NCBI RefSeq assembly: GCF_015351075.1
Contig: NZ_JADKRS010000003.1
Span: forward strand, 248,001-312,000
DNA: 64,000 nt
Direction: 5' to 3'
Origin: Clavibacter sp. VKM Ac-2873
GTDB lineage: Bacteria > Actinomycetota > Actinomycetes > Actinomycetales > Microbacteriaceae
Shown here: positions 4,583 to 27,976 of the stretch, one piece after another
Numbering within the stretch: position 1 is the stretch's first letter
Layout of the letters: each line of letters starts with the position of its first letter
Translations under genes and position numbers: made by a program
The notes under the pieces: model-generated
What the model was told of the DNA's origin: nothing
Databases searched by the model: none
What the model saw: only the letters and a program-made list of their open reading frames with translations

Positions 4583-4588
4583 GAGCGG

Positions 4589-5369: not shown

Positions 5370-5375
5370 TGCAGG

Positions 5376-6020: not shown

Positions 6021-6033
6021 CCGGCTCGGCATG

Positions 6034-6082: not shown

Positions 6083-6414
6083 TGCGGCTCCCGGCAAAAC
6101 CCCCAGAACGGGGGGCATTGGACGGAGTCTGGAAATAAGGCCCCGAGAAGCGTCCGCCGCGCGCCGGGAATGGCCGCATCCTCGTTCCACCAGGCAATCC
6201 CCAGGATCCTGTGCCCGCGACCCGAGTCGATGAGCCCACTCGCCGACAGACGCTGATCACGATCCTGTCCACAATCGGCCCTTTAGCGTTCAACTACCAC
6301 GTTCGATGCGTTCGCATGACCCCTTGACAGCGCCGACCTACCATCGGTTACCTTCGTGCTCGACGCCGCCGGCACCCGCCGTGGCACCTCCCGGAGAACG
6401 ACAGAGGAAGAGGG
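6083..6414 (+). promoter_or_regulatory. Leader/promoter region of the Pfa-like operon
   Basis: Non-coding, visibly more A+T-rich than its surroundings. It holds a CCCCC-agaac-GGGGG hairpin (6100-6114), TTGACA at 6324-6329 and an actinobacterial-type -10 TACCTT at 6349-6354 (19-base spacer, slightly long), then a leader of about 60 nt ending in AGAGGAAGAGGG directly before the ACP ATG. The -35/-10 pair is the best promoter candidate for the whole 21.5-kb operon. Confidence 0.45.
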
Positions 6415-6684
6415 ATGCGGGAAATGGTCGAATCACACGAGGTACGAGGATGGCTGATCGAGAAGATCGCCGTGCGCACGGGCCTGGAAGCGCATGAGGT
6501 GCGCCCCGACATGTTCTTCGACGAATTCGAGCTGGATTCCACGGAGGCCCTGGTGCTGGCGGGCGAGCTGGAGGAATGGCTCGGATTCGCGCTCGCCCCC
6601 ACGGCCCTCTGGTACTTCCCCACCATCGAGAAGCTCGCCGAGCACGTGGCGAGCGCCTCCGAACCCGAGTCCGTCCCCCGCTGA
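6415..6684 (+). CDS. Free-standing acyl carrier protein
   Basis: An acidic protein of 89 residues with the carrier-protein core FFDEFELDSTEALVLAGELEEWLGFAL. Ser42 in the DST motif is the expected phosphopantetheine site, to be charged by the operon's PPTase. AGAGGAAG four bases upstream decides the ATG at 6415 over the ATG at 6424. It opens the operon, separate from the single ACP inside the PfaA-like protein, so it may carry a starter unit, an extender or the product to the dehydrogenases. Local base composition is a little less G+C-rich than the later genes. Confidence 0.88.
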   Translation: MREMVESHEVRGWLIEKIAVRTGLEAHEVRPDMFFDEFELDSTEALVLAGELEEWLGFALAPTALWYFPTIEKLAEHVASASEPESVPR

Positions 6685-6688
6685 GACC

Positions 6689-7564
6689 GTGCCCACCGAC
6701 ACGCCTCCCCAGGGGCGACCCCGGGTCCACGTCATCCACCCGGGCACCCTGCCCGCCTCCGCGTACGGGCCGCTGGGCGAGGCGTGCACCGGGGTCGACT
6801 GGGGCGTGAGCGACCTCGGCACCCGTCGCGACTACGCCCACGCCGGCTTCGACCCGGCCGCGTCGGACCTCAGCATGGACGAGCTCGTCACGCGGCTCCT
6901 CGACGAAGACGGAGCGCTCCTCGACCAGGCGGATCTCCTGGTCGGCTGGTCATTCGGCGGCCTCGTGGCACTCGCGGTCCGCGAGCGCTCCCCCCGGGAT
7001 CCCGCCGTCCTGCTGCTCGACACGGTGGCACCCACGATCGACGTCGAGGGCTCGCGGACGCACCTCGCGCGCTGGTTCGCCGACTACCTCGGCACCCGCG
7101 CGGGACGCCCGCTCGCGGCCCCGCCCCCCGGATCCGACGACAGGCGGGAGCCCCTCGCTGCCCTCCACGGACCCGCCGTCGAGGCGGGCGCCATCGCCCC
7201 CGACGTGAGCCGCGGCGGGTTCCTCGCGCTGGCACGCGCCTACACCGGCGGGCTCGAGCGGAACGTGCGGATGACCGCATCACGGGAATGGCCGAGGCCC
7301 GCCCGGATCGCGCTCGTGAAACCCGTCGACGGCCTCCTCCCGGAAAGCGCGGCGAACGGCTGGGAGGACGCGGCGGATTCCGTCGAGGTCATCCCGTGCC
7401 CCGGCGACCACTATTCGATGCTCTCCGACCCGACGAGTCGCGGGGTGATCGCCGAGCAGATCATCGCCCGCGCCATGGAAATGCGACCGGAATTCTCCGG
7501 ACATATCACCTCGCACCCGTCGGGTGCCGAGCGGAATTCATCATCTCGATTGGGAGAAGAATGA
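6689..7564 (+). CDS. Alpha/beta-hydrolase, thioesterase-like
   Basis: A protein of 291 residues with an alpha/beta-hydrolase triad layout: nucleophile Ser88 in GWSFGG, probable acid Asp214 (KPVDGLL) and His241 in PGDHYSM. The GDHYSML end matches stand-alone (type II) thioesterases and PKS/NRPS thioesterase domains. The likely role is release of the finished chain or editing of mis-primed carrier proteins; the choice is inferred from position. The GTG at 6689 lies four bases after the ACP stop, and the gene's own stop overlaps the next ATG (ATGA). Confidence 0.82.
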   Translation: MPTDTPPQGRPRVHVIHPGTLPASAYGPLGEACTGVDWGVSDLGTRRDYAHAGFDPAASDLSMDELVTRLLDEDGALLDQADLLVGWSFGGLVALAVRERSPRDPAVLLLDTVAPTIDVEGSRTHLARWFADYLGTRAGRPLAAPPPGSDDRREPLAALHGPAVEAGAIAPDVSRGGFLALARAYTGGLERNVRMTASREWPRPARIALVKPVDGLLPESAANGWEDAADSVEVIPCPGDHYSMLSDPTSRGVIAEQIIARAMEMRPEFSGHITSHPSGAERNSSSRLGEE

Positions 7565-10500
7565 ACGAGAACATCGGCGACGCGGAACTCGACCGTCGTC
7601 TGGCGCGCACCCCGCTCGCCGTCGTGGGCATTTCGAGCCTGTTCCCGGGATCCTCCGACGTGGAGGGATTCTGGAATGGCATCGTGGATCGCGTGGATTC
7701 CATCCGCGACATCCCGGAATGGCACTGGGACGTCGCCGACCACTATTCGGCGGACCGTTCGGCGCCGGACAAGACCTACTCCCGGCGCGGCGGCTTCATC
7801 GACCCGGTGCCGTTCCACCCCATCGAGTTCGGGATCCCGCCGGCACAGCTCGACGTGACCGACGTGCTGCAGCTGCTCAGCCTCGTCGTCACCCGCGACG
7901 TGCTGGAGGACGCCCGCGCCGAGGGCAGCGGCTGGTTCGACCGCGAGCGCACGGGCATCGTGCTCGGCGTCACGGGCGCCAACCAGCTGACCCAGCCGCT
8001 CTCGGCCCGGCTGCAGACCCCCGCCGTGCGCCGCGCGGCGCGCTCCATCGGCCTGAGCGAGGCCGACGCCGACGAGCTCGCCCGCCGCTTCAGCGCCGGG
8101 TTCGCGCCCTGGGAGGAGAACTCGTTCCCCGGGATGCTCGGCAACGTGGTGGCCGGTCGCGTGGCCAACCGCTTCGACCTCGGCGGCATGAACATGACGG
8201 TGGACGCGGCCTGCGCCAGCTCCCTCGGCGCCCTCCGCGCGGCCGCGGCCGAGCTCGTGGACCACCGCGCCGACACCATGATCACGGGCGGCTGCGACGC
8301 CGAGAACACGATCTTCATGTACCTGTGCTTCTCGAAGACGCCCGCCTTCAGCCCCACGGGCGACGTGCGGCCGTTCGACTCCTCGTCCGACGGCACCCTC
8401 ATCGGCGAGGGCATCGGCATGCTCGCCCTCCGCCGCCTCGACGACGCCGAGCGCGACGGCAACCGGATCTACTCGGTGATCCGCGGCATCGGCTCGGCGA
8501 GCGACGGCCGGTACAAGTCCATCTACGCGCCGCGGGCGAGCGGGCAGCAGCTCGCGCTCCGCCGCGCGTACGAGGACGCCGACTGCTCCCCCACGTCGGT
8601 CTCGATCATCGAGGCGCACGGCACGGGCACCGCGGTCGGCGACGCCACCGAGCTCAGCGCCCTCGCCGAGGTGCTGACCGAGAGCGGCGCGGCGGAGTCG
8701 TCCATCGGCATCGGATCCGTGAAGTCGCAGATCGGGCACACCAAGGCCGCGGCGGGGGCCGCCGGCCTCATCAAGCTCTCGCTCGCGCTGCAGCACCGCA
8801 TCCTGCCGCCCACCATCAAGGTCGAGAAGCCCGCGGACGCGTTCACGGGCAGCCCGCTGCACGTGGCCACGCGCACCCGGCCGTGGTTCCGGACCCCCGA
8901 GCGGCCCGTGCGCCGCGCGGGCCTGTCCGCCTTCGGGTTCGGGGGCACGAACTTCCACGTGGTGCTCGAGGAGCACCCCCGGTCGCGGGAGCTCGGCAAC
9001 GCGCTCGACCGCCCCACCGTGTGGCTCTGGACCGCGCCGACCGCCGAGGAGCTCGCCGCCGCGCTGGACGCGGGGGCCGCGCCCGTGCCGTCGGGCACCG
9101 CCATCGACGCGGATGCGCCCCGCATCGCCGTGGTCGCCGTGACGGAGGCCGCGCGCGACGCGCTCCTGCCGGCCGCCGCGCGGCGCCTGCGGGAGACGCC
9201 GGAGCGCGCGTGGTCCGATCCGCGCGGGATCCACCACCGGCCGGCCGCCCTCCGCGGCACCGTCGGGATCCTCTTCTCCGGCCAGGGCAGCCAGCACGTC
9301 GACGCCGGCCTCGGCGCCGTGCTCCGCGAGCCGCTGCTGATGGACGCGCTGGAGGACGCGTACGCGACCCCGGGCCTCGAGCACCTGGCCGCCCTCGCCT
9401 ACCCGCCGCCGCCCGCCGACGAGGCCGCCGGAGCCGAGGCCGAGCGCGCGCTCCGGGCGACGGAGAACGCGCAGCCCGCCATCGGCGCGCTGTCCGCCGC
9501 GCACCACCGGCTCCTCGGCGAGCAGGGGCTCGGGCTCGCCGCATCCGGCTTCGTCGGGCACAGCTTCGGCGAGCTGACGGCGCTCTGGGCGGCCGGGTCC
9601 TTCGACCACGGCACGTTCCTCACGCTCGCCCGCGAGCGCGGCCGGGCCATGGCCGACGCGGCGAGCGCGCACGGCGACGCCGGATCCATGGCCGCCGTGC
9701 TCGCCGACCGGGAGACCGTCGACCGGCTCCTCGCCGCCAGCGAGGGCGTCCTGCTCTGCAACGCCAACAGCCCGCGCCAGTTCGTCGTCGGCGGGCCCGT
9801 CCAGGCCGTCGCCGAGCTCGTGCGCCGGGCCGAGGCCGACGGGATCCGCGTGGTCGAGCTGCCCGTGTCCGCCGCGTTCCACACGCCCGCCGTCGCGGGC
9901 GCCGTGGGCGCGTTCGGGGACGCGGTGCGCTCGCACGGCGTCGGCGCCCCGACCCGGGGCGCGGTCTACGCGAACACGGCGGGCGAGGAGTACGGCGAGG
10001 ACGCCGCGGCGAACGCCCGGATCCTCGCGGACCAGCTCGCCCGGCCCGTGGACTTCGAGCGGGCCGTCCGGCGCATGCACGACGACGGCATCCGGATCCT
10101 CGTGGAGTGCGGCCCCGGGAACGTCCTCGGCCGCCTGGCGACGAGCATCCTCGCCGACGACCCCGACGTGCTCGTCGTGAGCGCGGACGCGGGCGACCCC
10201 GACGCCTCCCCGCAGGCGCTCGCCACCGCGATCGCGCAGCTCGCCGTCGCCGGCGCGCTCCCGCGCTGGCAGAGCGCGGGCCTCCGCGCACGACCCGCTG
10301 CCCGCCCGGGCAAGGGCCCCGCGGTGATGCTCGCGGGCGTGAACCACGTGTCCGCCGACCGCGCGGCCGCGTATGAGGAGCTCCTGGCCACCCCGTACGC
10401 GCTCCGCGCCGATGCCCCCCACGAGCAGGACGCCTCCACCGCGCCGCTGCGCGCGTCGACCCCGGCCGACGATCCCACGGCCCCGCGCCCGCGCGCGGAG

Positions 10501-13500
10501 CTCGTGCCCTCCACCCCCCTCCCGTTCCTCCCGCGAAGCGAGTCATCCACCATGAGCATCACCTCCGCATCCACCGCCACCCGCACCACCCCCGTCTCCG
10601 CCGACCAGCTCGACCTCGCGAAGGAGCAGCTGCACGTCCACGCCGCGTTCCTCTCCGGCCAGCAGAACGTCAGCGAGTCCCTGCTCGCGATGCTCGACGG
10701 GGGCGCCGGCCGCCTCTCCGTGGACGGGATGCGCGAGATCGTCGCGCAGTGCATCGCCGTCGGCGACGCGCACGTGCAGGTCAACCGCCTGATCACCGGC
10801 ATCGGCGACGGCGGGGCCGCCCCGGCAACCGCGCTGCCGACCGCGCGGGACGGCGGCGCGCTCCTCGCCCGCCCCCGGGTGGAGGCGACCGCCGCTCCCG
10901 CCGAGCCCGCCGCCGGGCTGCACCCCGTGCCCGCGCCGGCGCCCGCGCCCGCCCCGGCACCCGCGCCGACCCCCGCGGCCGCCCCGGCAGCAGCGCCGGC
11001 CCCCGCCCCCGCGGCCGCGTCCGCATCCGCCGCCGCGCCGGCCACGACCCCGGCACCCGTCGCCGCGGCACCCGCCGCCGCCGCCGCCCCCGCGGATCCG
11101 GCCGCCGAGGTGGACGTCGACGCGCTCGTCCGGGGGATCGTGGCCGAGAAGACCGGCTACTCGGCCGACATCCTCGAGTCCGACATGGGCATCGAGGCGG
11201 ACCTCGGCATCGACTCGATCAAGCGGGTCGAGATCCTCGGCGCCATCGGCGAGCGCTTCCCCGGCCGCGCGCCGTTCTCGCCCGAGGAGGTCGCCGAGCT
11301 GCGGACCCTGGGCGACATCGTCGAGGCGCTCCGCGGCCAGACCACCGGCACCAGCCGGGAGCGCCGCGCGTCCGCCGCCGCGGACGACGAGGAGGCTGCG
11401 CCAGGGATCCGCAGGTCGACGGTGCGCTGGGCGCGCATCGCGGGACCCGACCTCCCGGCGACCGTGGCGTCCCGCGTGGTGCGGGTGCGTGACGGATCCG
11501 CGTCGGGCATCGCGCCCCGGCTGCGGGACGAGCTCCGGGCGGCCGGGCACGACGTGCGGATCGACGGGGACGGCGACCACGCCGACCACGCGGACGCCGA
11601 CCTCGTGCTCATCGTCGGCCCCCGCCCGGACGCCGACGCGACGGAGACGCTCGTGGAGGCGCTCGAGGCGGTCCGCGGATTCGCCCTGGCCGTCGCGGAC
11701 CGCGCGGCCGCGGCCGCCGGCCCGGGTGCCGACGGCGTCCACGCGGCCCCGCAGCTGCTCGCGGTCGGGCTCGTCGACGACCGGGACGGCACCGACGCGC
11801 GCGGCATCGCCGCCGCCGGGCTCGCGGGCCTCGTCCGCACGCTGCGCATCGAGCACCCGGGGATCCGGGCCCGCGCCCTGCTCCTCGAGGGCGGCGCGGA
11901 CGACCCCGCCCCCGCCCTCATCGCCTGGGAGCTCGACGACACCGCCGACGGGCTCGACACCGTCCGGTGGCGCGACGGCCGGCGCGAGGCGCCCGTCGTC
12001 GAGCCGGAGGCGCCCGCCCCCGACGCGGACGCCTCCGGCCGGGCCGCCTACGCGGACCTCGGAGCCGGCGACCTGGTGCTCGTGACCGGCGGCGCGCAGG
12101 GCATCACGGCCCGCTGCATCCGCGACCTCGCCGCGGCGCACCCCGGCCCGGGCCTCGTCCTCGTCGGGCGCACGCCGCTCGACGAGGAGGAGGGCTGGTC
12201 GCGCGGCCTCGCCGAGGAGGCCGACCTCCGCGCCGCGGCCACCGAGCACCTCCGCAGCACCGACCGGCGCCCCACCCCGCGCTCCGTGGGCGCGCTCGTG
12301 GCGTCCGTCGCCGCGCGCCGCCAGGTGCGGGACCAGCTCGCCCGGCTCCGCGCGGACGGCACCGAGGTGCACTACGCGAGCGTCGACCTCACCGACCGCG
12401 ACGCCACCGCCCGCGCCCTCGCGCCGTACGCCGACCGCATCGCCGGCATCGTGCACGGCACCGGCGCCATCGCCGACCGGCTGCTCGTCGACAAGACCCC
12501 CGAGGACGCCACGCGCGTCATCTCCACCAAGGTCCGCGGCCTCGAGAACGCGATCGCCGCCCTCGGCGGCACGGCGCGGCTCCGGCACGTGGCCCTGTTC
12601 GCCTCGGTCGCCGGCCTCTTCGGCAACCGCGGCCAGTCCGACTACGCCATGGCCAACGCCGTGCTCGACCGCTGGGCCGAGTCCCTCGCCGACCGCCTGC
12701 CCGACGCGCACGTGGTCGCCATCGACTGGGGCGCGTGGGAGGGCGGCATGGTCTCCGACGCGGTCCGCGAGCTGTTCCGCTCGCGCGGGTACGCGCTGGT
12801 GGGCCAGGACGACGGGGCGCGCCTGTTCGTCGAGCAGTTCGGATCCGCGCGCACGGCGCAGACGCACGTGCTGCTGGGCCCGGCCGAGCCGCTCTCCGGG
12901 GATCCGGCGCCGCTGCGTCCCACGCGCAGCGCCCAGCCGCTGGGCGAGCTGCTCGACTCCGAGCTGGTGCACGCCCACGCGCTGGAGGGGCGGCGGATCC
13001 TGCCCACGGCCGCGGCCGTGTGCCTGCTGGCGGGCGCCGCGATCCGCCACACCGGGCACGGCATCGCGCGGATCGAGGACATCCGCGTGACCGCGGGCAT
13101 CGAGGAGGGCACGGGCTCCTCGTTCGCCGTCTCGCTGGAGGAGGGGCCCGCCGCGGCGGACGGCTCCACGACCGTGCGGGCCGCCCTCGCGAGCGTCGGG
13201 GACGGGCCCGCGGGCACCGACCGGCCCCGGTTCACGGCCGCGTTCGTGAGCGGATCGGCGGCGACGGCCCTCCCGGCGGGATCCGCGGGATCCGCCGCAT
13301 CCGCGGGTGCGCTCCCGCCGCTCCGCCCCATCGACCCCTACGCCTCCGGCCTGCTCTTCCACGGCGACGCGCTGCGCGCCGTGACGGGGATCGCCCGGGA
13401 TGGCGCCGACGTGATCGTGGGGGCGGTGGATCCCGCCGTCCCGCGCCCCGCCGAGACCCGCGGCGCGGGCCCCGTGGACGCCGCGACGCTCGACGTGCTC

Positions 13501-13815
13501 CTGCAGGCCGCCCTGGTCGCCGCCCACGAGGCCACCGGGATGCGCACGCTGCCGTCGGCCATCGGCACGCTGCGCTGGACGGGGGAGGTGTCGCCGGGAG
13601 ACGCGCTCACCGTCCGCGCCACCCGGATCGAGGAGCGGCCGGACGGCGTGCGGATGGACCTCGAGGCGCGCACCGGCGACCGCGTGTTCGCGATGCTCGA
13701 CGGCGTCGTCGTCACCCGCCGGCCCGAGCCCGTGGCCGAGGCCGCCGCGGCGGCCGCCTCCGCGACGACCGCCGAGATCCACGCCGCCTCGCTCCCGACG
13801 GCGATCCGCGCATGA
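7561..13815 (+). CDS. pfaA-like: PfaA-like multidomain synthase (KS-AT-ACP-KR-DH)
   Basis: A protein of 2,084 residues. Domains in order: ketosynthase about 15-470 (Cys218 in DAACASS, histidines in EAHGTGT and GHTKAAAG); acyltransferase about 565-880 (Ser668 in GHSFGELTAL); a linker with a long Pro-Ala stretch about 1120-1180; one ACP about 1180-1260 (Ser1219 in LGIDSIKRVEI); ketoreductase about 1500-1780 (VTGGAQGIT, SVAGLFGNRGQSDYAMAN); C-terminal double-hotdog dehydratase about 1800-2070 (HALEGRRILP, DVLLQ). This is the PfaA order of PUFA synthases, except that those usually have several tandem ACPs. ATG overlaps the upstream stop. Confidence 0.9.
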   Translation: MNENIGDAELDRRLARTPLAVVGISSLFPGSSDVEGFWNGIVDRVDSIRDIPEWHWDVADHYSADRSAPDKTYSRRGGFIDPVPFHPIEFGIPPAQLDVTDVLQLLSLVVTRDVLEDARAEGSGWFDRERTGIVLGVTGANQLTQPLSARLQTPAVRRAARSIGLSEADADELARRFSAGFAPWEENSFPGMLGNVVAGRVANRFDLGGMNMTVDAACASSLGALRAAAAELVDHRADTMITGGCDAENTIFMYLCFSKTPAFSPTGDVRPFDSSSDGTLIGEGIGMLALRRLDDAERDGNRIYSVIRGIGSASDGRYKSIYAPRASGQQLALRRAYEDADCSPTSVSIIEAHGTGTAVGDATELSALAEVLTESGAAESSIGIGSVKSQIGHTKAAAGAAGLIKLSLALQHRILPPTIKVEKPADAFTGSPLHVATRTRPWFRTPERPVRRAGLSAFGFGGTNFHVVLEEHPRSRELGNALDRPTVWLWTAPTAEELAAALDAGAAPVPSGTAIDADAPRIAVVAVTEAARDALLPAAARRLRETPERAWSDPRGIHHRPAALRGTVGILFSGQGSQHVDAGLGAVLREPLLMDALEDAYATPGLEHLAALAYPPPPADEAAGAEAERALRATENAQPAIGALSAAHHRLLGEQGLGLAASGFVGHSFGELTALWAAGSFDHGTFLTLARERGRAMADAASAHGDAGSMAAVLADRETVDRLLAASEGVLLCNANSPRQFVVGGPVQAVAELVRRAEADGIRVVELPVSAAFHTPAVAGAVGAFGDAVRSHGVGAPTRGAVYANTAGEEYGEDAAANARILADQLARPVDFERAVRRMHDDGIRILVECGPGNVLGRLATSILADDPDVLVVSADAGDPDASPQALATAIAQLAVAGALPRWQSAGLRARPAARPGKGPAVMLAGVNHVSADRAAAYEELLATPYALRADAPHEQDASTAPLRASTPADDPTAPRPRAELVPSTPLPFLPRSESSTMSITSASTATRTTPVSADQLDLAKEQLHVHAAFLSGQQNVSESLLAMLDGGAGRLSVDGMREIVAQCIAVGDAHVQVNRLITGIGDGGAAPATALPTARDGGALLARPRVEATAAPAEPAAGLHPVPAPAPAPAPAPAPTPAAAPAAAPAPAPAAASASAAAPATTPAPVAAAPAAAAAPADPAAEVDVDALVRGIVAEKTGYSADILESDMGIEADLGIDSIKRVEILGAIGERFPGRAPFSPEEVAELRTLGDIVEALRGQTTGTSRERRASAAADDEEAAPGIRRSTVRWARIAGPDLPATVASRVVRVRDGSASGIAPRLRDELRAAGHDVRIDGDGDHADHADADLVLIVGPRPDADATETLVEALEAVRGFALAVADRAAAAAGPGADGVHAAPQLLAVGLVDDRDGTDARGIAAAGLAGLVRTLRIEHPGIRARALLLEGGADDPAPALIAWELDDTADGLDTVRWRDGRREAPVVEPEAPAPDADASGRAAYADLGAGDLVLVTGGAQGITARCIRDLAAAHPGPGLVLVGRTPLDEEEGWSRGLAEEADLRAAATEHLRSTDRRPTPRSVGALVASVAARRQVRDQLARLRADGTEVHYASVDLTDRDATARALAPYADRIAGIVHGTGAIADRLLVDKTPEDATRVISTKVRGLENAIAALGGTARLRHVALFASVAGLFGNRGQSDYAMANAVLDRWAESLADRLPDAHVVAIDWGAWEGGMVSDAVRELFRSRGYALVGQDDGARLFVEQFGSARTAQTHVLLGPAEPLSGDPAPLRPTRSAQPLGELLDSELVHAHALEGRRILPTAAAVCLLAGAAIRHTGHGIARIEDIRVTAGIEEGTGSSFAVSLEEGPAAADGSTTVRAALASVGDGPAGTDRPRFTAAFVSGSAATALPAGSAGSAASAGALPPLRPIDPYASGLLFHGDALRAVTGIARDGADVIVGAVDPAVPRPAETRGAGPVDAATLDVLLQAALVAAHEATGMRTLPSAIGTLRWTGEVSPGDALTVRATRIEERPDGVRMDLEARTGDRVFAMLDGVVVTRRPEPVAEAAAAAASATTAEIHAASLPTAIRA

Positions 13816-20675: not shown

Positions 20676-22317
20676 CACCTGGGGCTGGACCGGCCCCGAC
20701 ACCCCCGATCCCTCGGCGGAGGCCCTCGCCCGGGCCCTGCACGACGTGGAGCGCCCCGTCTTCGTGGTCGAGACGGCCGACGGCCCCGCCGTCGTCTCGA
20801 CCGGCGGGATCTCGGCCGCGCCCAGCGCGCGCCTGCTCGCCGCGGCGGGCGCCGTGGATCCGGACGCCCTCGGCTCCGCGGCGTTCCGCGCGGACCACGG
20901 CGTGCGCGCCGCGTACATGGCGGGCGCGATGGCCGGCGGGATCGCCTCGGTCGAGCTCGTCGCGGCCCTCGCGAACTCGGGGTACCTGGCCTCCTACGGC
21001 GCGGCGGGGCAGCTCCCCGAGCACATCGACCACGCCGTGGAGCGGATCCGCCGGGCCGCGCCCGGGCGCCCCTTCGCGGTCAACGTCATCCACAGCCCCA
21101 GCGAGGCGGCCCTCGAGGACGGCGTGGTCGACGTCCTGCTGGGCCGGGGGGTCCACCTCGTGGAGGCGTCGGCGTACCTCGAGCTCACGGAGCCGCTCGT
21201 GCGCTACCGGCTCACCGGAGCGCACCGCACGCCCGACGGGCGCGTCGTGGCGCCGAACCGGGTGATCGCCAAGGTGTCGCGGCCCGAGACGGCCCGGCTG
21301 TTCCTCCAGCCGCCGCCCGCCGCGATCGTCCGCCGCCTGGAGGAGCGCGGCGCGATCACGGCGGCCGAGGCCGCCCTCGCCGGCGAGGTGCGCATGGCCG
21401 ACGACATCACCGCGGAGGCCGACTCGGGCGGGCACACCGACCGGCGGCCGCTGATGCCGCTGCTGTCGAGCATCATCCTGCTGCGGGACCGCATGACGCC
21501 GGCGGGCACGGTCGGCCCGCGCGTCGGGGCCGCCGGCGGGCTCGGCACCCCCGAGGCGCTCGCGGCGGCCTTCGCGATGGGCGCGGAGTACGTGGTCACC
21601 GGATCGGTGAACCAGTCGTGCGTCGAGTCGGGCACGAGCGACGCGGCCCGCGAGATGCTGGCCGCCGCCGAGCTCACGGACTTCGCCATGGCCCCCGCCG
21701 CCGACATGTTCGAGCTCGGCGTGGAGCTGCAGGTGCTCCGGAAGGGCACGATGTTCCCGATGCGGGCGTCGCGCCTGCTGACCATGTACCGGGCGGCCAC
21801 GTCCCTGGAGGCGCTCGCCCCGGACGACCGCGAGTGGCTCGAGCGCGTGGTGCTGCGGGCGCCCGTCGAGGAGGTCTGGGCGAGCTGCGTGGAGTACTTC
21901 ACGCGGCGGGATCCGGATCAGCTCACGCGCGCCGCGGGCGATCCCCGCCGCCGGATGGCGCTCGTCTTCCGCTGGTACCTCGGGATGGCCTCCCGCTGGG
22001 CGTCCGTCGGCGAGCCGGGCCGCGAGGCCGACTACCAGGTCTGGGCGGGGCCGGCCCTCGGCGCCTTCAACGCCTGGGTCGAGGGCACGCCGCTCGAGCG
22101 GCCGGAGGGCCGGCACGTGGCCCGCGTGGCCGACGTGCTCCTCCGCGGCGCCGCCGTCGCGACGCGCGCCACCGTCCTCACGGCGAGCGGGGTGCGCACG
22201 GGCGCGGTGGACGCCGCCCGCCTCCTCGACGCGGTGGCCGCGCACGCCGCGGCCGCCGCCGCCCCTGCCCCCGACGACGCGGATGCCGCCGTCCCCGCGG
22301 GCGGAGCGCACCGATGA
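20668..22317 (+). CDS. pfaD-like: PfaD-like enoyl reductase (nitronate-monooxygenase fold)
   Basis: A flavin TIM-barrel protein of 549 residues in the PfaD/FabD2-like enoyl-reductase family. Typical segments are MAGAMAGGIASVELVAALANSGYLASYGAAG, PFAVNVIHSPSE, VGAAGGLGTPEALAAAFAMGAEYVVTGSVNQ and the PfaD-specific PAADMFELGVELQVLRKGTMFPMRA. In PUFA synthases PfaD acts in trans to reduce selected trans-2-enoyl intermediates with FMN and NADPH. The ATG overlaps the previous gene by eight bases. The C-terminus is Ala-rich. Confidence 0.92.
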   Translation: MTDTWGWTGPDTPDPSAEALARALHDVERPVFVVETADGPAVVSTGGISAAPSARLLAAAGAVDPDALGSAAFRADHGVRAAYMAGAMAGGIASVELVAALANSGYLASYGAAGQLPEHIDHAVERIRRAAPGRPFAVNVIHSPSEAALEDGVVDVLLGRGVHLVEASAYLELTEPLVRYRLTGAHRTPDGRVVAPNRVIAKVSRPETARLFLQPPPAAIVRRLEERGAITAAEAALAGEVRMADDITAEADSGGHTDRRPLMPLLSSIILLRDRMTPAGTVGPRVGAAGGLGTPEALAAAFAMGAEYVVTGSVNQSCVESGTSDAAREMLAAAELTDFAMAPAADMFELGVELQVLRKGTMFPMRASRLLTMYRAATSLEALAPDDREWLERVVLRAPVEEVWASCVEYFTRRDPDQLTRAAGDPRRRMALVFRWYLGMASRWASVGEPGREADYQVWAGPALGAFNAWVEGTPLERPEGRHVARVADVLLRGAAVATRATVLTASGVRTGAVDAARLLDAVAAHAAAAAAPAPDDADAAVPAGGAHR

Positions 22318-23984
22318 CGCTCACCGCTCCCGCGACCGAGACGCGCGCCCCGGACACGGACCTCCGCTGGCTCGGCGACCCGTTCGCCCCCGACAACCCG
22401 GCGGGCTTCGCGCAGGCCGTCGCGCGGTCCCGGCGCGGGGTCCGGCCGGTCAAGGTGCTCGAGCGCGCGCGCCGCGCCGGCCTGCACCTCATCTACACGC
22501 CGCGGATCTGGGGCGGCGCCCTCGAGGATCCGGTCGCCTCCGGCCGCATCGCCCGCACGCTGGTGGCGCGCGACGCCGACATCATGACGAACCTCCTCAT
22601 GTCGCTCACGCCCGTGCTCATCAGCGGCCTCCTCGGCGACGACGCGCAGCGGGCGGACGTGGTCGCCACGGTCGTCCGCGGCGGGCACGTCGGCTACGCG
22701 CTCTCGGAGCGGCGGCACGGATCCGACCTCCTGCACCTGGAGACGCGCGCCGAGCACGACGGCGACCGCATCACCCTCACCGGCCGCAAGTGGTGGGTCG
22801 GCCAGGCGCCCACCGCCGAGCGCCTTGTGGTCATCGCGCGCAGCGGCGAGCGGGGACCGCTCGCGTTCTCGGCCTACGACGTGGCCGCCCCCGCGCCCGG
22901 GCTGGCGGTGCGCCCGCCGCACGCCACCGCCGGGTTCCGGGGCACCGAGTTCAGCGACGTGGACCTCGACGGCGTGGTCGTGCCCGGATCCGCGCTCCTC
23001 GGCGAGCAGGGCGCCGCGCTCGGCGCCGTGCTCACCTCCCAGTCGATCGTGCGGACGCTGAGCCTGCCCGGCGCGCTCGCGTGCATGGACGCCGACCGGC
23101 TGCTGCTCACCCGGCTCTCCGCGGAGATCCGCGGGGGCAAGGCGCTGCGCGACGACGTCGTGTTCCTCGCCGAGGTGGGGCGCATCGCCGCGCGCGTGCT
23201 CGCCGCCGAGGCGGTGGCCGAGGCCGCCCTGCGGGAGATGGCGACGGATCCCGCCTCCGCGGTCCTCCGCTCCGCGTTCGCCAAGCACGTCGTGTCGCGC
23301 TGCACCCAGGAGGTGCACGACCTGGTGGGCGACGCGCTCTCGACGCGCGGCATCGCGGGCGACGGGGCCTGGGGGATGCACGACAAGGTCGTGAGCGACG
23401 CGCGCGCCATCCGCGTCATCGACGGCAGCCCGCTCGCGACCCTCCGCACGGTCGCCGGGTTCCTCCCGCGCTGCGTCGCCGACGCGGGCGAGGAGCCGCC
23501 GACCGTCCAGCGGGACGCGGACCTCCGCGGCTTCGACCCGGCCCGGGTCGCGATGACCCCGCCGCGCCGCGACGAGGCCGTCGCGCTCCTCCGCCGGGAC
23601 GAGGACGCGCTCCGGGCCACGCCGGACGGCGCGTCGCGCGCCCCCATCGGCGCGCTCCTCGCGGCGCTCGACGACTCGACCCGCCGCATCGGCGCCGCGG
23701 CCTCCGCCGCGCGCGAGCTCCGGCCGGCCGCGCTCCTCGCCGAGACCCGGCGCCACGCCTGGCTGTCGAGCGCGGCGAGCGCCGTGGTCGCGCGCCGCTC
23801 CGGGCTCGTCGGCCCGGTCGCCGCGCGCCTCGGCGGGTGCAGCATCCCGCTCGCCGTGGCCGCGCTGCTGGAGGGCGCCGGTATCCCCGGCGTCGAGCCC
23901 TCGGTCGCGGAGGCGGCCGACCTCGGCCGCGCCCTGCTGGACGCGGGCGCCGACGAATTGCGGGAGTGGGGCGGAGATGCCTGA
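22314..23984 (+). CDS. Acyl-CoA dehydrogenase-like flavoprotein 1
   Basis: A protein of 556 residues with the acyl-CoA dehydrogenase fold: GGHVGYALSERRHGSDLLH for the flavin loop, LTGRKWWVGQAPTAER, FRGTEFSDVDLDGVVVPGSALLG, and a C-terminal helical bundle. The usual catalytic Glu-Gly-Thr region appears as IDGSPLATLR, so an Asp seems to stand where medium-chain dehydrogenases have Glu376. It has a C-terminal extension of about 120 residues with no known domain. It is paired with a second paralogue. Oxidation of an ACP- or CoA-bound chain is inferred from context. Confidence 0.85.
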   Translation: MTLTAPATETRAPDTDLRWLGDPFAPDNPAGFAQAVARSRRGVRPVKVLERARRAGLHLIYTPRIWGGALEDPVASGRIARTLVARDADIMTNLLMSLTPVLISGLLGDDAQRADVVATVVRGGHVGYALSERRHGSDLLHLETRAEHDGDRITLTGRKWWVGQAPTAERLVVIARSGERGPLAFSAYDVAAPAPGLAVRPPHATAGFRGTEFSDVDLDGVVVPGSALLGEQGAALGAVLTSQSIVRTLSLPGALACMDADRLLLTRLSAEIRGGKALRDDVVFLAEVGRIAARVLAAEAVAEAALREMATDPASAVLRSAFAKHVVSRCTQEVHDLVGDALSTRGIAGDGAWGMHDKVVSDARAIRVIDGSPLATLRTVAGFLPRCVADAGEEPPTVQRDADLRGFDPARVAMTPPRRDEAVALLRRDEDALRATPDGASRAPIGALLAALDDSTRRIGAAASAARELRPAALLAETRRHAWLSSAASAVVARRSGLVGPVAARLGGCSIPLAVAALLEGAGIPGVEPSVAEAADLGRALLDAGADELREWGGDA

Positions 23985-25854
23985 GCGGCGTCCGATGGAA
24001 CCGTCGACCGATCCCGACGGCCGCGTCCGCCGCCTCGCGCTCGGCCGCGCGTTCGAGTCCGCCATGGGCGACCCGTGGGGCGAGGGTCCGTTCGGGTTCC
24101 CCGCCGCCCGGATCCGCGACGAGACCGAGCGCGAGGCGAGCGCCGAGCTCCGGGACCTCCTCGCGACGGGCTTCGTCCGCTGGACCGTGCCCGCCTCCGC
24201 GGGCGGCGAGGCGGTCGACGTCGACGAGACGTTCCTCCTCGCCCGCCTGCTCTCCCGCCGCGACCAGTCGCTCGCCGTCACGGCGATGGCCACGACGGTC
24301 GGCTACCTCCCGGTGTGGGTGGGCGGCACCGACGCGCAGCGGGCGGACCTCGGCGCCCGGGTGCTCGCGGGCGACCGCGTGGGCTTCGCGCTGTCGGAGC
24401 GCACGCACGGCAGCGACGTGCTGGCCAACGAGACGGTCGCGACGCGCGTGCCCGGCGGCTGGAGCGTCGACGGATCCAAGGAGGGCATCGGCAACGCCGA
24501 GCACGCGCGCTTCTTCACGTGCGTGGCGCGCACGGGATCCCGGCCCGGCCCCGGCAGCATGTCGATCCTGCTGGTCGACCGCGAGCGCGCCGGCGCCGCC
24601 GACGCCGTGCGGGACGCGCGCACCTGGCGGATGACGGGCCTCCGCGGCTTCGCCCTCGGCGACGTGGCGTTCCACGACGCCCGCGTGCCGGACGACGGCC
24701 TCGTCGCCCCCGAGGGCCACGGCCTGGAGACGCTGCTGCGCTCCGGTCAGGTCGCGCGGGCGCTCATCACCGCGCTGCCCCTCGGCGGCACCGACACCTC
24801 GCTCCGGCTCGCGCTCGACTTCGCGCGCCGCCGGCGGATCTTCGGCGGCCGCGTCTCCGACGCCCCGTACACCCGCCGCCAGCTCGCCGAGTGCTTCGCG
24901 CGCCTGATCCTCACGGAGAGCGGCAACACCGCCGCCATCCGCGGGATCCAGGCCTTCCCCGGCCAGGCGGTCGTGCTCAGCAGCGCGGTGAAGTACGCGA
25001 TCCCGCGGCAGCTGACGGTGATCCAGGACACCCTCACCGACGTCATCGGCGCCCGCCACTTCGACCGCGAGCACCCCCGCTTCTCCCCGCACGCGAAGGC
25101 CGTGCGCGACGGCCGGGTGGCGCACTTCGCGGACGGCAACGCGGTCGTGGTCCTCAAGGCCGTCGCGGCGGCGCTCGACCGCGTGCTGCCCGGGGACCAC
25201 GCGATCACCGCGGCCGGGGATCCGCCTGCCGACCCGTCCGCCGACCCGCGCGACGACCTCGCCCGGGTCGCCGACCTCTCCGCGACGCTGCCCGGCTTCC
25301 ACCCCCAGCACCAGACGATCGCCGCGCAGGGACCGGACGTCGCGACCGCCGCGCTCGCGGGAGCGGCGCGCCGCCTCGCGGCCCTCGCGGCCGACCCGGC
25401 GGAGGGCGACGCGGCGGAGGGCGACGCCGCCAGCGCCGACGCCGGCCCCGCCCTGTCCGCCCTCGCCCGCCGCGCATCCGACGACCTCGCCCGCATCTGG
25501 GAGCGCGGCCGCGCCGCCCGCGCCCGGCACGCGCGGGCCCTCGCCGCCGAGGGGCCGCGGTACCTCGCCTCGGCCGGGCCGCTGCGCACGGCCGAGCTCG
25601 GCTGCGGGATCGTCATGGCCGGCTGCGCGTGCGCCGCCTGGTCCGGCAACCCCACCGCGCTCGGCACCGCGCGGGAGACGCTCGCGGTCCTCGCGCTCGG
25701 CCTCGCCCTCGACGCGGGCACCGCCGACGACGTCGACCCGGGCGTCGTGGAGCTGGTCGCGCGCGTGGCCGAGCGCCTGCACGACGAGGGCCGCCTGTTC
25801 TCGTACCTGCCCGTGGAGCTCGCGCCCGAGGCCGAGGAGCCGTCGTGGGCCTGA
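23977..25854 (+). CDS. Acyl-CoA dehydrogenase-like flavoprotein 2
   Basis: A protein of 625 residues, longer than the usual 380-residue family member. It has GDRVGFALSERTHGSDVLANE, WSVDGSKEGIGNAEHARFF, WRMTGLRGFALGDVAFHDARVP, and ALDFARRRRIFGGRVSDAPYTRRQLAE as in dehydrogenase helix G. The catalytic-loop position reads FADGNAVVVLK, again Asp rather than Glu. The C-terminal 200 residues form an Ala-rich extension. It may form a heteromer with the preceding paralogue, as paired mycobacterial FadE proteins do; that is inference. Starts within the last eight bases of the previous gene. Confidence 0.85.
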   Translation: MPERRPMEPSTDPDGRVRRLALGRAFESAMGDPWGEGPFGFPAARIRDETEREASAELRDLLATGFVRWTVPASAGGEAVDVDETFLLARLLSRRDQSLAVTAMATTVGYLPVWVGGTDAQRADLGARVLAGDRVGFALSERTHGSDVLANETVATRVPGGWSVDGSKEGIGNAEHARFFTCVARTGSRPGPGSMSILLVDRERAGAADAVRDARTWRMTGLRGFALGDVAFHDARVPDDGLVAPEGHGLETLLRSGQVARALITALPLGGTDTSLRLALDFARRRRIFGGRVSDAPYTRRQLAECFARLILTESGNTAAIRGIQAFPGQAVVLSSAVKYAIPRQLTVIQDTLTDVIGARHFDREHPRFSPHAKAVRDGRVAHFADGNAVVVLKAVAAALDRVLPGDHAITAAGDPPADPSADPRDDLARVADLSATLPGFHPQHQTIAAQGPDVATAALAGAARRLAALAADPAEGDAAEGDAASADAGPALSALARRASDDLARIWERGRAARARHARALAAEGPRYLASAGPLRTAELGCGIVMAGCACAAWSGNPTALGTARETLAVLALGLALDAGTADDVDPGVVELVARVAERLHDEGRLFSYLPVELAPEAEEPSWA

Positions 25855-26666
25855 TGCGCGGCAGGTCCGCGACCGCGACCGCGCCGGCCGCCCCGCCCGC
25901 GCCCGTCGCCCCGACCGCGCCCGCCGCCCCGGAGTCCCCGCCCCGCGCATCCGTCCTGCTCGCCGGCGCCGCCGACATGCGGGAGCTCGCCCGCCGCCCG
26001 CTCGCGCACCAGGCCGATCGCGAGCGGCGCGACGCGATGCGGTCCGAGCGCGCGCGCACCCGCTTCACGGCCAGCCGCGTCCTCGCCGCCGAGCTCCTCG
26101 AGCGCCACGACCTCCCCGGCCCGCCGCGCATCACGGCCGACCCCCTCGGCCGGCCGCTGCTCCCCGAGCGCTGCGGCCTGTCGGTGAGCATCTCCCACAC
26201 CGAGTCGTGGATCGCCGTCGCCCTGTCGTCGAGCCCGAGCTGCGGCGTCGACGTGCAGTCCCCCGTGGATCCGGCGCGCTTCACGACCGTGATCCTGGAG
26301 CGGTTCCTGCCGCCCGGCTGGGTCGACCTCCTGGACCGGGAGCTCGACCCCACCCGCCGCTTCACGCGCATGTGGGCCTCCGTGGAGGCCGGCCTCAAGT
26401 GGCACGGCACGGGCTTCGCCGTGGGGGTCGACGCCCTCGACTGGCGCACCGACGGCCTCGCCTCCCGGGTCACGGATCCCGCGTCGGGCCGCTCGGCGCG
26501 CATCCACGTGCACGACCTCGACGACGGATCCGCCCTCGCCTTCGCGTCGGCCCCCTGCGCGCCCCGCGACGTCGAGCTCGGCACCCTCCGCGAGCGCCTG
26601 CGCCTCCCCGACGACACCATCCGATCCCCCGCATCCCCGACCCTCCCAGGAAGAGGTAGACCATGA
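25854..26666 (+). CDS. Sfp-type 4'-phosphopantetheinyl transferase
   Basis: A protein of 270 residues that would convert the two ACPs of this operon to holo form using coenzyme A. Seen: SVSISHTESWIAVALS, CGVDVQSP (magnesium-binding GVD) and the third motif WASVEAGLKWHGTGF. The last is WxxVEAxxK rather than the usual WxxKEAxxK, so one normally conserved Lys is changed while Glu, Ala, Lys and the following Gly remain. A low-complexity Ala/Pro N-terminus precedes the domain. The ATG at 25854 gives a TGATG overlap; a GTG at 25845 is possible. Confidence 0.86.
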   Translation: MRGRSATATAPAAPPAPVAPTAPAAPESPPRASVLLAGAADMRELARRPLAHQADRERRDAMRSERARTRFTASRVLAAELLERHDLPGPPRITADPLGRPLLPERCGLSVSISHTESWIAVALSSSPSCGVDVQSPVDPARFTTVILERFLPPGWVDLLDRELDPTRRFTRMWASVEAGLKWHGTGFAVGVDALDWRTDGLASRVTDPASGRSARIHVHDLDDGSALAFASAPCAPRDVELGTLRERLRLPDDTIRSPASPTLPGRGRP

Positions 26667-27976
26667 CCGACGCACTCCCCCGGCTCGCGATCATCGGCGC
26701 CGGCATCTCCGGCATCGCGGCCGCCTACGAGGCCCGCGACCGCGCCCGCATCGTGATGTACGAGGCCGCTGAACAGCCGGGCGGCCACGCGTGCTCCATC
26801 GACGTGGGCCACGGCATCGGCCTCGACACGGGCTTCGTCGTCTTCAACCGCCCCAACTACCCGCGCCTGGCGGCGTTCTTCGCGGAGCTGGGCGTCGAGA
26901 CGACGCCGCACCGGGGCCAGTTCACCTTCTTCGACCACGTCGGCGGCCGCGTCTACGGCTCCCCGGAGCTCGAGTCGGAGACCGAGCCCGAGGATCCGGA
27001 GCTGGCCCTGATCTGGCGCGAGTCGGCGCGCTTCGGCCGGGAGGGCCGCCGCGACTTCCTGCGCGGCCAGGCCGACATGCCGCTCCGCGAGTACCTCGAC
27101 CGGAACGGGTACGCGCGCTCGTTCCAGGACGGCTACATCGTGCGCCTCAGCACGGCCGTGTGGTCGGCCCCCTTCGACCTCGTCTGGGACATGCCCGCCG
27201 CGACCGTGATCGCGTACTTCCTCGCGCACGGCAACAGCTCGCTGGGCGGGCGGGGCGTCGGCTGGGAGACGGTCACGGGCGGATCCCGCCGGTACGTCGA
27301 CGCCGCCCTCGCGGCCATCCGGCCGGACCTCCGCCTCTCCACCCCGGTCTCCGCCGTCGCCGAGGACGCGGACGGCGTGACCGTCACGACCGCGGCGGGC
27401 GACGTCGAGCGCTTCGACGCCGTCGTGATCGCGACGCACGGCGACACCGCGCGGGGGATCCTCGCCACGCCGACCGACGGCCAGCGGCGGGCGCTCGCGG
27501 GCATCCGGTACTCCACGAGCCGCATGGTGCTGCACACCGACACGAGCGTGCTGCCCGCCGACCGCGCCCGCTGGACGAGCTGGAACTACGGCGACCACGA
27601 GGGCCCCGCCGGGCCCGTGCCGTACGTGGCCTGGTACCTCAACGAGCTCCAGGGCTTCGAGTCGGCGACCGACTACGTGGTCACGCTCGACTACGCGGGC
27701 GAGATCGCGCCCGAGCACGTCATCGCCGACCACCGGGTCCAGCACCCGATCATCGACCTGCCGCTCCGGCAGCTGCAGAAGGAGATCCACCGGCTGACCA
27801 CGAGCGACCGCGTGGCGCTGGCGGGCTCGTACTTCCACTCCTCGGACCTCGGCTGGGACGTGATCGGATCCCACGAGGCCGGGTTCACCTCCGGCACGCG
27901 CGCCGCCCGCGCGCTGCTGGCGACGCGGGCGGCGGAGACGCCGCCGGCGGTGACCGGCACGGCCGTCCCCGCCTGA
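26663..27976 (+). CDS. FAD-dependent oxidoreductase, COG2907-like
   Basis: A protein of 437 residues with a dinucleotide-binding start (LAIIGAGISGIAAAYEARDRARIVMYEAAEQPGGHACS) and the family strings LDTGFVVFNRPNYPRLAAFFAELGVET, VTGGSRRYVDA, YSTSRMVLHTD and SDLGWDVIGSHEAGFTSG. This amine-oxidase/phytoene-desaturase-like family often sits beside cyclopropane-fatty-acid synthase-like genes and has been linked to modification of unsaturated acyl chains. As last gene of the lipid operon it may desaturate, isomerise or oxygenate the product. RBS AGGAAGAGG overlaps the end of the PPTase gene. Confidence 0.85.
   Translation: MTDALPRLAIIGAGISGIAAAYEARDRARIVMYEAAEQPGGHACSIDVGHGIGLDTGFVVFNRPNYPRLAAFFAELGVETTPHRGQFTFFDHVGGRVYGSPELESETEPEDPELALIWRESARFGREGRRDFLRGQADMPLREYLDRNGYARSFQDGYIVRLSTAVWSAPFDLVWDMPAATVIAYFLAHGNSSLGGRGVGWETVTGGSRRYVDAALAAIRPDLRLSTPVSAVAEDADGVTVTTAAGDVERFDAVVIATHGDTARGILATPTDGQRRALAGIRYSTSRMVLHTDTSVLPADRARWTSWNYGDHEGPAGPVPYVAWYLNELQGFESATDYVVTLDYAGEIAPEHVIADHRVQHPIIDLPLRQLQKEIHRLTTSDRVALAGSYFHSSDLGWDVIGSHEAGFTSGTRAARALLATRAAETPPAVTGTAVPA

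What the first reader, a model, noticed from the sequence alone, without database searches (positions are those of the whole stretch)
6415..27976. Complete Pfa-like secondary-lipid operon with tailoring oxidases in a Gram-positive actinobacterium
All catalytic parts of a PUFA-type iterative synthase are present (KS, AT, ACP, KR, PKS-type DH, second KS with CLF, second AT, two FabA-like DH pairs, PfaD-type ER, PPTase), joined in one coupled operon to a free ACP, a thioesterase-like hydrolase, two acyl-CoA dehydrogenases and a COG2907-like flavoprotein. Classic PUFA clusters (pfaABCDE) lack these oxidases. Pfa-like clusters of unknown product are known from genome surveys of many phyla; this tailoring set suggests a further-dehydrogenated polyene or modified fatty acyl product.
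Basis: partly seen in the sequence, partly recalled or inferred. Interest (0 to 1): 0.88.

Follow-up and report, generated by a model that had tools for sequence, protein, structure and literature searches.

The report
PUFA-type synthase cluster with acyl dehydrogenases
A Clavibacter genome carries a gene cluster, shared with some Streptomyces and other actinobacteria, that builds a fatty chain with omega-3-type machinery and probably makes it more unsaturated, oxidises it and exports it as a compound of unknown structure.

Summary
A nine-gene coupled operon (6415-27976) encodes a free ACP, thioesterase, PfaA (KS-AT-ACP-KR-DH), fused PfaBC (KS-CLF-AT-two FabA-type DH pairs), PfaD, two acyl-CoA dehydrogenases (ACADs), PPTase and a flavin oxidase. 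Both ketosynthases fall inside the Pfa clade, beside EPA/DHA synthases. The cluster is larger than reported: a MerR regulator, an ABM-fold protein and a DHA2 drug-efflux-type exporter travel with it (about 5376-29939). It is a recurring type: 14 further clusters (2 Clavibacter, 9 Streptomyces, Kutzneria, Sphaerisporangium, Catenulispora) carry the core seven genes, and the family rows form one clade in both KS trees; 70 of 80 best PfaD loci show no ACAD. The ACADs look complementary (RxxFG in 0 of 15 ACAD1, 13 of 15 ACAD2) and may be one heteromeric enzyme. In Clavibacter michiganensis and one other species the synthase is lost, yet regulator, ABM and exporter stay open and constrained. Best reading: a PUFA-synthase-derived pathway to an exported, extra-desaturated (polyene-like) product, not a membrane PUFA. 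The product and all chemistry after chain assembly are inferred. Eight paper searches found no description. New variant of a known kind.

The parts
5376..6020 (+). MerR-family regulator, probable cluster regulator
   Evidence: PF13411 61.9 bits; found by tblastn in 9 of 14 related clusters
6324..6354 (+). possible MerR-type promoter: TTGACA, 19-nt spacer, TACCTT (weak evidence)
   Evidence: kept in G004 with the same spacer; G006 has TTGACA with an 18-nt spacer; the sigma-70 scan found no site
6415..6684 (+). free acyl carrier protein (89 aa)
   Evidence: PF00550 42 bits; closest solved structure Asl1650, 2afd, 51 bits; 14 of 14 related clusters
6689..7564 (+). thioesterase/hydrolase (GWSFGG nucleophile motif)
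   Evidence: motif; ortholog L145 is PF00975 64 bits; 12 of 14 related clusters
7561..13815 (+). PfaA: KS-AT-one ACP-KR-DH(motif)
   Evidence: TIGR02813 1250 bits; Pfam domains; motifs; KS tree
13812..20675 (+). PfaBC: KS-CLF-AT(motif)-two FabA-type DH pairs
   Evidence: PF00109/PF02801, PF07977 246 bits; motifs; KS tree
20668..22317 (+). PfaD enoyl reductase
   Evidence: TIGR02814 578 bits, cut-off 449
22314..23984 (+). ACAD1: acyl-CoA/acyl-ACP dehydrogenase-like, lacks RxxFG, Asp370 at the catalytic-acid position
   Evidence: PF02770 61.6 bits; NCBIfam hits all far below cut-off; columns
23977..25854 (+). ACAD2: acyl-CoA/acyl-ACP dehydrogenase-like, has RxxFG, Asp386 at the catalytic-acid position
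   Evidence: PF02770/PF00441/PF02771; columns
25854..26666 (+). 4'-phosphopantetheinyl transferase
   Evidence: PF17837 and PF01648, both just over cut-off
26663..27976 (+). flavin amine-oxidase-fold oxidoreductase (FAO)
   Evidence: PF01593 86.6 bits; closest solved structure LkcE, 137 bits by profile; 14 of 14 related clusters
28043..28456 (-). small ABM-fold protein (possible monooxygenase)
   Evidence: PF13826 19.3 and DUF3291 16.9 bits, both below cut-off; model pLDDT 88.5; 12 of 14 related clusters
28470..29939 (-). DHA2 (EmrB-type) MFS exporter; 489 aa from the ATG at 29939, 477 aa from the GTG at 29903
   Evidence: TIGR00711 271 bits, cut-off 230, scanned from 29903; start; 11 of 14 related clusters

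Best explanation
The region encodes a specialised-metabolite pathway built on a PUFA-type iterative synthase. PfaA, PfaBC and PfaD, activated by the local PPTase, build an acyl chain from malonyl units. The FabA-type DH pairs are expected to leave cis double bonds in it, as in EPA/DHA synthases. The chain is then handed to the free ACP or CoA. ACAD1 and ACAD2, most likely as one heteromeric flavoenzyme, add alpha,beta-unsaturation; the FAO oxidises or isomerises further; the ABM-fold protein may add oxygen or cut the chain. The thioesterase releases the product and the DHA2 exporter secretes it under MerR control. SHOWN: the genes, their domains and motifs, the Pfa ancestry of both KS, the conserved gene set, and survival of regulator, ABM and exporter where the synthase is gone. 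INFERRED: substrate, order of steps, double bonds, oxidation and secretion of a bioactive polyene-like product.
For: (1) KS trees: the family is one clade (100/100) beside EPA/DHA-type and cyanobacterial synthases for PfaA-KS (15 family rows of 56; joint fork 98/98) and PfaC-KS (14 family rows of 57; joint fork 100/100). (2) FabA-type His motif followed by an acidic residue: two copies in 13 of 14 family loci examined, window included, and one in L047; one copy in 5 of 5 marine loci (the pattern was written on the window, so a pair with other spacing would be missed). (3) Core seven genes in 14 of 14 related clusters; junctions +4 to -8 nt. (4) Acidic residue at the MCAD-type catalytic position in 30 of 30 ACADs; RxxFG in 0 of 15 ACAD1 and 13 of 15 ACAD2, recalling the split roles of alpha2beta2 ACADs (PMC11153573, passages). 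(5) Exporter is DHA2 drug-efflux type. (6) Regulator, ABM and exporter are open in two genomes that lack the synthase, pairwise dN/dS 0.09-0.37, against 0.11-0.30 in G004, which keeps it, and 0.20-0.50 for two flanking genes as control. (7) Af470-like ABM genes near the cluster in three relatives (124.9 and 98.7 bits in the two tested), an aldehyde dehydrogenase beside one; this type cleaves an unsaturated chain in fumagillin (PMC7020470, PMC11727611, passages).
Against: No product is known. The window's ABM-fold protein is below its Pfam cut-offs and its profile finds no credible solved relative. By tblastn exporter and regulator are found in only 11 and 9 of 14 relatives. FAO's nearest solved relative is LkcE, an amine oxidase of another pathway, and the FAO model is poor (pLDDT 65.8). 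ACAD family scores are far below curated cut-offs; window ACAD1 is nearest the carrier-protein dehydrogenase RedW (74 bits), but its Streptomyces ortholog is nearest acryloyl-CoA reductase (70.6 bits; RedW 26.3), so the carrier-bound substrate is only a hint. Both ACADs keep the acid, unlike the split in ChsE enzymes. Pairwise dN/dS averages both branches and cannot exclude a recent loss. Expression is unknown.
Confidence: 0.57

Rival explanations
1. An ordinary membrane-lipid PUFA synthase (EPA/DHA-like) whose ACADs, FAO and exporter are incidental neighbours.
For: Both KS are sister to EPA/DHA-type synthases; KR, FabA-type DH and ER are all present.
Against: ACADs, FAO and free ACP are coupled in the operon and present in 14 of 14 related clusters (ACADs partly by selection), from four families besides Clavibacter's (names); a drug-type exporter accompanies 11 of 14 and a MerR gene 9 of 14, and both outlive the synthase.
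Confidence: 0.15
2. A mainly saturated or hydroxylated long-chain lipid, or head-group conjugate, as in heterocyst glycolipids or phenolic lipids; the ACADs set one double bond or act on the starter or side chain.
For: The free ACP is closest to Asl1650 among solved structures (its tie to the heterocyst lipid genes is recalled) and similar to small ACPs near PfaD in cyanobacterial loci; the thioesterase is in 12 of 14.
Against: FabA-type DH pairs keep their motifs, whereas the heterocyst type lacks these domains (PMC3098273, passage); my blast grouping of 10 named genome clusters showed no further widely shared enzyme that could make a head group (most neighbours were not annotated).
Confidence: 0.15
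3. Polyene dicarboxylate route: the chain becomes conjugated and the ABM-fold protein cleaves its end, as Fma-ABM does in fumagillin and as proposed for Lim18 in limocrocin.
For: Af470-like ABM genes near 3 of the 10 named genome clusters grouped, an aldehyde dehydrogenase beside one of them by Pfam and a same-family gene in a second; ABM-fold protein in 12 of 14.
Against: The window's own copy is only weakly similar; 7 of those 10 show no such Af470-like gene in the DNA held.
Confidence: 0.2
4. A decaying or silent cluster in this strain: one ACP, patchy distribution and losses in the genus.
For: 3 of 18 genus genomes carry it; one PfaA ACP where two Streptomyces have 4 and 5; relics in two genomes.
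Against: Reading frames are open, motifs intact, and the set is kept at 57-87% best-segment identity per gene in G006.
Confidence: 0.1

Closest known systems
Marine EPA/DHA synthases pfaABCDE (Shulse and Allen types A and B)
   Same: KS-AT-ACP-KR in PfaA, KS-CLF-DH2 in PfaC, PfaD ER, PPTase; sister clade for both KS
   Different: PfaB AT fused into PfaC, one ACP, plus ACADs, FAO, free ACP, thioesterase, ABM, exporter and MerR
Secondary-lipid types C, D and L (PMC3098273)
   Same: fused pfaBC; C has KS-CLF-AT-DH2 and pfaD at the 3' end, as here
   Different: no oxidases in the text read; L has pfaD at the 5' end and KS-CLF-DH2-AT; the pfaD-first actinobacterial rows form another PfaA clade
Heterocyst glycolipid synthase (hgl, type F)
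   Same: free ACP similar to Asl1650 (link to hgl recalled); cyanobacterial PfaC-KS rows in the sister clade (taken to be hgl-like, not checked)
   Different: type F lacks the FabA-type DH domains; no ACAD found in the cyanobacterial loci
Limocrocin / fumagillin polyene pathways (PMC11727611, PMC7020470; passages read)
   Same: ABM-family protein, carrier-bound polyene logic; thioesterase in limocrocin
   Different: chain built by discrete ketosynthases and ACP (Lim10-12) or by the fungal Fma-PKS, not by a PUFA-type synthase
Mycobacterial alpha2beta2 ACADs ChsE4-ChsE5, ChsE1-ChsE2 (PMC11153573, PMC6678751; passages read)
   Same: a pair of ACAD genes with complementary loss of a motif
   Different: sterol-CoA catabolism; heteromer formation is not tested here and both subunits here keep the acid

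Membership tests
Pfa-type secondary lipid synthase | KS phylogeny inside the Pfa clade | tested here: met
   Searches (56 rows; 57 rows), starred forks
Pfa-type secondary lipid synthase | at least one KS, ACP and KR (PMC3098273), with PfaA/PfaD family scores over cut-off | tested here: met
Pfa-type secondary lipid synthase | makes a long-chain fatty acyl product | not testable with these tools
   needs chemistry
EPA/DHA synthase (types A/B) | separate pfaB, 4-6 tandem ACPs (type A), PPTase with P0 and P1b motifs | tested here: not met
   AT fused in PfaBC; one ACP; PPTase reads VSISH, fitting P1b', and shows no P0 (sequence, motifs; compared by eye)
EPA/DHA synthase (types A/B) | omega-3 PUFA in phospholipid | not testable with these tools
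   -
Type L (Streptomyces coelicolor type) | pfaD at the 5' end, KS-CLF-DH2-AT | tested here: not met
   pfaD is 3' of PfaBC and the AT motif precedes the DH motifs (gene order)
Type C (Desulfatibacillum) | pfaBC KS-CLF-AT-DH2, pfaD at the 3' end | tested here: met
   architecture only
Type C (Desulfatibacillum) | KS groups with type C KS | not tested
   no named type C sequence was in hand
Heterocyst glycolipid synthase (type F) | no DH/I domains in the PfaC homologue | tested here: not met
   two FabA-type pairs with His motifs
alpha2beta2 acyl-CoA dehydrogenase | two subunits with complementary FAD/catalytic features | tested here: inconclusive
   RxxFG 0 of 15 vs 13 of 15, but the acid is present in 30 of 30; in ChsE the alpha subunit holds the catalytic Glu
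Af470-like ABM monooxygenase | PF13826 over its cut-off | tested here: not met
   19.3 bits against 25; ABM-like order of strands and helices in the model, by eye; fold search not answered
DHA2 efflux MFS (EmrB) | TIGR00711 over its cut-off | tested here: met
   271.3 bits against 230.2
COG2907 / UfaD-like lipid desaturase | membership of that family | not testable with these tools
   no COG library; UfaD precedent read in passages

The most novel reading that the evidence does not exclude
A PUFA-type synthase has been turned into a polyene-antibiotic pathway. The synthase first makes a skipped cis-polyene; a heteromeric acyl-ACP dehydrogenase acting on a free ACP, together with the flavin oxidase, converts it to a fully conjugated polyene; the ABM-fold enzyme cleaves or oxidises the end; the product is secreted. 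Relatives that lost the synthase keep the exporter as protection against producers.
Probability: 0.22. Interest if true: 0.8.

Novelty: new variant of a known kind. Interest (0 to 1): 0.62.

Why it matters
Of the 20 types of Pfa-like cluster in the 2011 survey, 14 had uncharacterised products (PMC3098273). This type is closest to the omega-3 synthases yet carries conserved flavoenzymes of the desaturating kind and a drug-type exporter, so it could show how a membrane-lipid synthase becomes a secreted-metabolite pathway, and whether an ACAD pair can act on a PUFA-type chain. Named Streptomyces hold complete copies, two of them on plasmids, so it is directly testable. The relics in Clavibacter michiganensis and one other species give natural losses with exporter retention.

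Tried and rejected
Rejected: (a) membership of the pfaD-first actinobacterial type L: wrong gene and domain order, different KS clade. (b) A hybrid with NRPS or modular PKS: the genes called on either side that I scanned are a DUF218 protein, a DUF4287 protein, a glycosyltransferase, a LacI regulator and an oxidoreductase, and two without a family. (c) Two independent ACAD steps as the default: weakened by the complementary motifs, not excluded. (d) A known product: ten paper searches, eight of them for this kind of cluster, gave no description of an ACAD-bearing Pfa cluster; the library lacks most subscription journals and bioRxiv. A genome paper mentions omega-3-synthase-like genes in Kutzneria albida (cluster kal28; PMC4210621, passages); whether that is this type I did not check.

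Led nowhere: sigma-70 and terminator scan, Rfam over 1-36000, profile search of the ABM-fold protein in PDB sequences, an FAO model of low confidence. The ACAD1 plasmid search returned 577 records, none covering 80% of the query; its two best rows proved to be complete Streptomyces clusters, the other rows I did not look into.

Selection to keep in mind: the ten named genome clusters were picked from the 80 best PfaD loci because they had ACAD hits, and the two plasmid clusters were found with ACAD1, so ACAD presence in the 14 is partly by choice; FAO, free ACP and the other genes were not selected for. Several of the 80 loci are short, so '70 without ACAD' means none in the DNA held. In the trees I used 56 and 57 rows out of 168 KS-like stretches plus 12 added; CLF stretches, partial rows and further rows of the same groups were left out by hand, and of 57 eligible other PfaC-KS rows I used 29. 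The Clavibacter G006 PfaC-KS, split over two loci, was left out.

Full report
What is there. The window lies in a 3.31 Mb genome in 14 contigs. Two plasmid pieces from two genomes of the same genus (of four pieces fetched) match named Clavibacter plasmids at 100% over the 6000 bases given, so the host is a Clavibacter species. From 6415 to 27976 nine genes follow each other on the + strand with junctions of +4 to -8 nt: free ACP, hydrolase, PfaA, PfaBC, PfaD, two ACADs, PPTase and a flavin oxidase (FAO). PfaA and PfaD score over the NCBIfam cut-offs for PUFA synthase proteins. Pfam gives KS, AT, ACP and KR in PfaA and KS and FabA-type domains in PfaBC. Catalytic motifs are in place: KS cysteine motifs at PfaA 217 and PfaBC 183, AT serines in GHSFGE and GYSLGA, one ACP serine motif, a PKS-DH motif, and two FabA-type His motifs. 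The PfaA DH and the PfaBC AT rest on motifs alone.

The cluster is larger than reported. A MerR regulator lies upstream (5376-6020). A small ABM-fold protein (28043-28456) and a DHA2 exporter (28470-29939; the in-frame ATG at 29939 is kept in the three other genomes checked) lie convergently downstream. These genes recur with the cluster in other genera.

Ancestry. In a tree of 56 PfaA-type KS and outgroups, 15 rows of this family form one clade (100/100). They join (98/98) the PfaA of Shewanella, Moritella, Colwellia, Photobacterium, Vibrio, Spirosoma, Flammeovirga, Nostoc and one further cyanobacterium, and lie inside the Pfa clade (100/99); FabF and other PKS rows lie outside. In a second tree of 57 rows, 14 PfaC-KS rows of the family form one clade (100/100), sister to 20 rows of marine, Bacteroidota, Chloroflexota and cyanobacterial synthases (joint fork 100/100). 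The two Clavibacter PfaC-KS rows sit on a long branch (1.27).

A recurring type. The PfaD scan of named genomes kept the best 80 of at least 567 loci. Ten of the 80 show ACAD genes by PfaD: seven Streptomyces, Kutzneria, Sphaerisporangium and Catenulispora; 70 of 80 show none in the DNA held. Two Streptomyces plasmids carry the cluster; the record's own annotation names an acyl carrier protein, a thioesterase, an SDR or type I PKS protein, a KS protein, a PfaD-family protein, two ACADs, an FAD oxidoreductase, MerR, DUF3291 and MFS. With the two further Clavibacter genomes this makes 14 clusters besides the window. By tblastn at E 1e-6 the hits are: ACP, PfaA, PfaBC, PfaD, ACAD1, ACAD2 and FAO 14 of 14; thioesterase 12; ABM 12; MFS 11; MerR 9; PPTase 8 (blast grouping puts a gene of the PPTase group in three more). 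ACAD presence was partly selected for. Gene order varies: FAO lies before the ACP in Kutzneria, Sphaerisporangium, Catenulispora and three of the Streptomyces, and Kutzneria also has ACAD2 there. In a phylum-wide draw of 396 genomes, 10 have a PfaD-family match at E 1e-60 and 7 over the cut-off. For the nine besides the window, 15 loci were checked and none shows an ACAD; five of the nine were looked at only over about 4 to 7 kb.

The ACADs. Both keep an acidic residue where MCAD has its catalytic Glu (30 of 30 sequences; Asp in 29, Glu in Kutzneria ACAD2), but only ACAD2 keeps the RxxFG motif (13 of 15; ACAD1 0 of 15). That RxxFG serves FAD binding is recalled. In mycobacterial alpha2beta2 ACADs the alpha subunit holds the isoalloxazine and the base while the beta subunit meets the ADP-ribose part (PMC11153573, passages). 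I infer one heteromeric enzyme, with the caveat that here both subunits keep the acid. Whether they act on ACP or CoA is open. Window ACAD1's best NCBIfam hit is the prolyl-carrier-protein dehydrogenase RedW (74 bits, cut-off 650), and the free ACP resembles Asl1650 and the N-terminal ACP of Pks13, but the Streptomyces ACAD1 and both ACAD2 proteins have CoA-enzyme families on top.

FAO and ABM. FAO is amine-oxidase-fold; its closest solved relative is LkcE (137 bits by profile), and the predicted model is weak (pLDDT 65.8). A desaturase predicted to bind NAD/FAD that acts on lipid chains, UfaD, sets a precedent (PMC7380195, passages); relation to FAO is untested. The window's small protein is below the Pfam cut-offs for Af470-like and DUF3291 (relatives score likewise, DUF3291 over cut-off in L113), and its model (pLDDT 88.5) has strand and helix order like the ABM fold (by eye). 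Two Streptomyces and Sphaerisporangium have a separate Af470-like protein by grouping (124.9 and 98.7 bits in the two tested), and one tested Streptomyces locus has an aldehyde dehydrogenase beside it. Fma-ABM of this type makes fumagillin from prefumagillin by oxidative cleavage (PMC7020470, passages), and Lim18 is proposed to do likewise in limocrocin (PMC11727611, abstract and passages).

Distribution and loss. PfaD of this kind is in 3 of 18 genus genomes; the PfaBC KS ortholog (E under 1e-200) is in 3 of 99 related genomes and in none of the 42 from other genera of the family. The site is the same in the window and G004; in G006 it differs, since the flanking DUF218 gene lies elsewhere. 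In G012 (C. michiganensis by its plasmid) and G017 the site holds MerR, ABM and the exporter with open frames, with only pieces of FAO, and in G012 also of ACAD1; G003 (C. californiensis by its plasmid) and G016 show nothing of the cluster at the site. Pairwise dN/dS to the window for the three survivors is 0.09-0.37, against 0.11-0.30 in G004, which keeps the synthase, and 0.20-0.50 for two flanking genes. Keeping a regulator and exporter after the synthase has gone fits a secreted, possibly inhibitory product better than a membrane lipid; it is not proof. Clavibacter PfaA has one ACP (window and G006) where two Streptomyces have 4 and 5.

Literature. Shulse and Allen (PMC3098273; abstract, passages and section 7 read) describe 20 types of Pfa-like clusters; the word dehydrogenase does not occur in that main text. 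Type C has the same PfaBC and pfaD arrangement. The 2026 survey of hybrid clusters (PMC13291983; introduction and first part of section 7 read) covers PKS-NRPS hybrids. The FabA-type DH role is taken from PMC9667614 (passages). None of eight paper searches gave a description of an ACAD-bearing Pfa cluster.

Verdict. Confirmed, extended, and of moderate to high interest: a recurring actinobacterial variant of PUFA-type synthase with conserved flavoenzymes and, mostly, an exporter; product unknown.

Noticed in passing
L169 (G012, Clavibacter michiganensis), 2401-5663: Relic of the cluster: MerR, ABM and exporter open, only pieces of FAO and ACAD1 left, synthase gone.
   Followed up: yes
L170 (G017), 1764-14868: A second relic with MerR, ABM and exporter open and part of FAO; other DNA with a DctM-type transporter gene and a 6-phosphogluconate-dehydrogenase-like gene lies nearby.
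   Followed up: partly
L145 and L146: Complete clusters on Streptomyces plasmids, one linear and typed non-mobilizable, one circular with a relaxase and typed mobilizable.
   Followed up: partly
L145 1-1823 and 28591-41067: Anthranilate synthase family and chorismate mutase genes beside the cluster, and on the other side a set annotated with a chain-length factor, KS, ACP and aromatase/cyclase.
   Followed up: no
L076 16904-19615, L068 10037-12330: Streptomyces sp. H27-S2 carries beside the cluster an aldehyde dehydrogenase and a clear Af470-like ABM; the S. roseus locus has same-family genes in the same order.
   Followed up: partly
window 6324-6354: TTGACA with a 19-nt spacer upstream of the ACP gene, kept in G004; spacing typical (recalled) of MerR-controlled promoters.
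   Followed up: partly
window 7561-13815: PfaA has one ACP after a long Ala/Pro linker, where two Streptomyces orthologs have 4 and 5 ACPs.
   Followed up: partly
window 51100-58439: Oligopeptide-type ABC transporter genes followed by an S15 peptidase gene.
   Followed up: no
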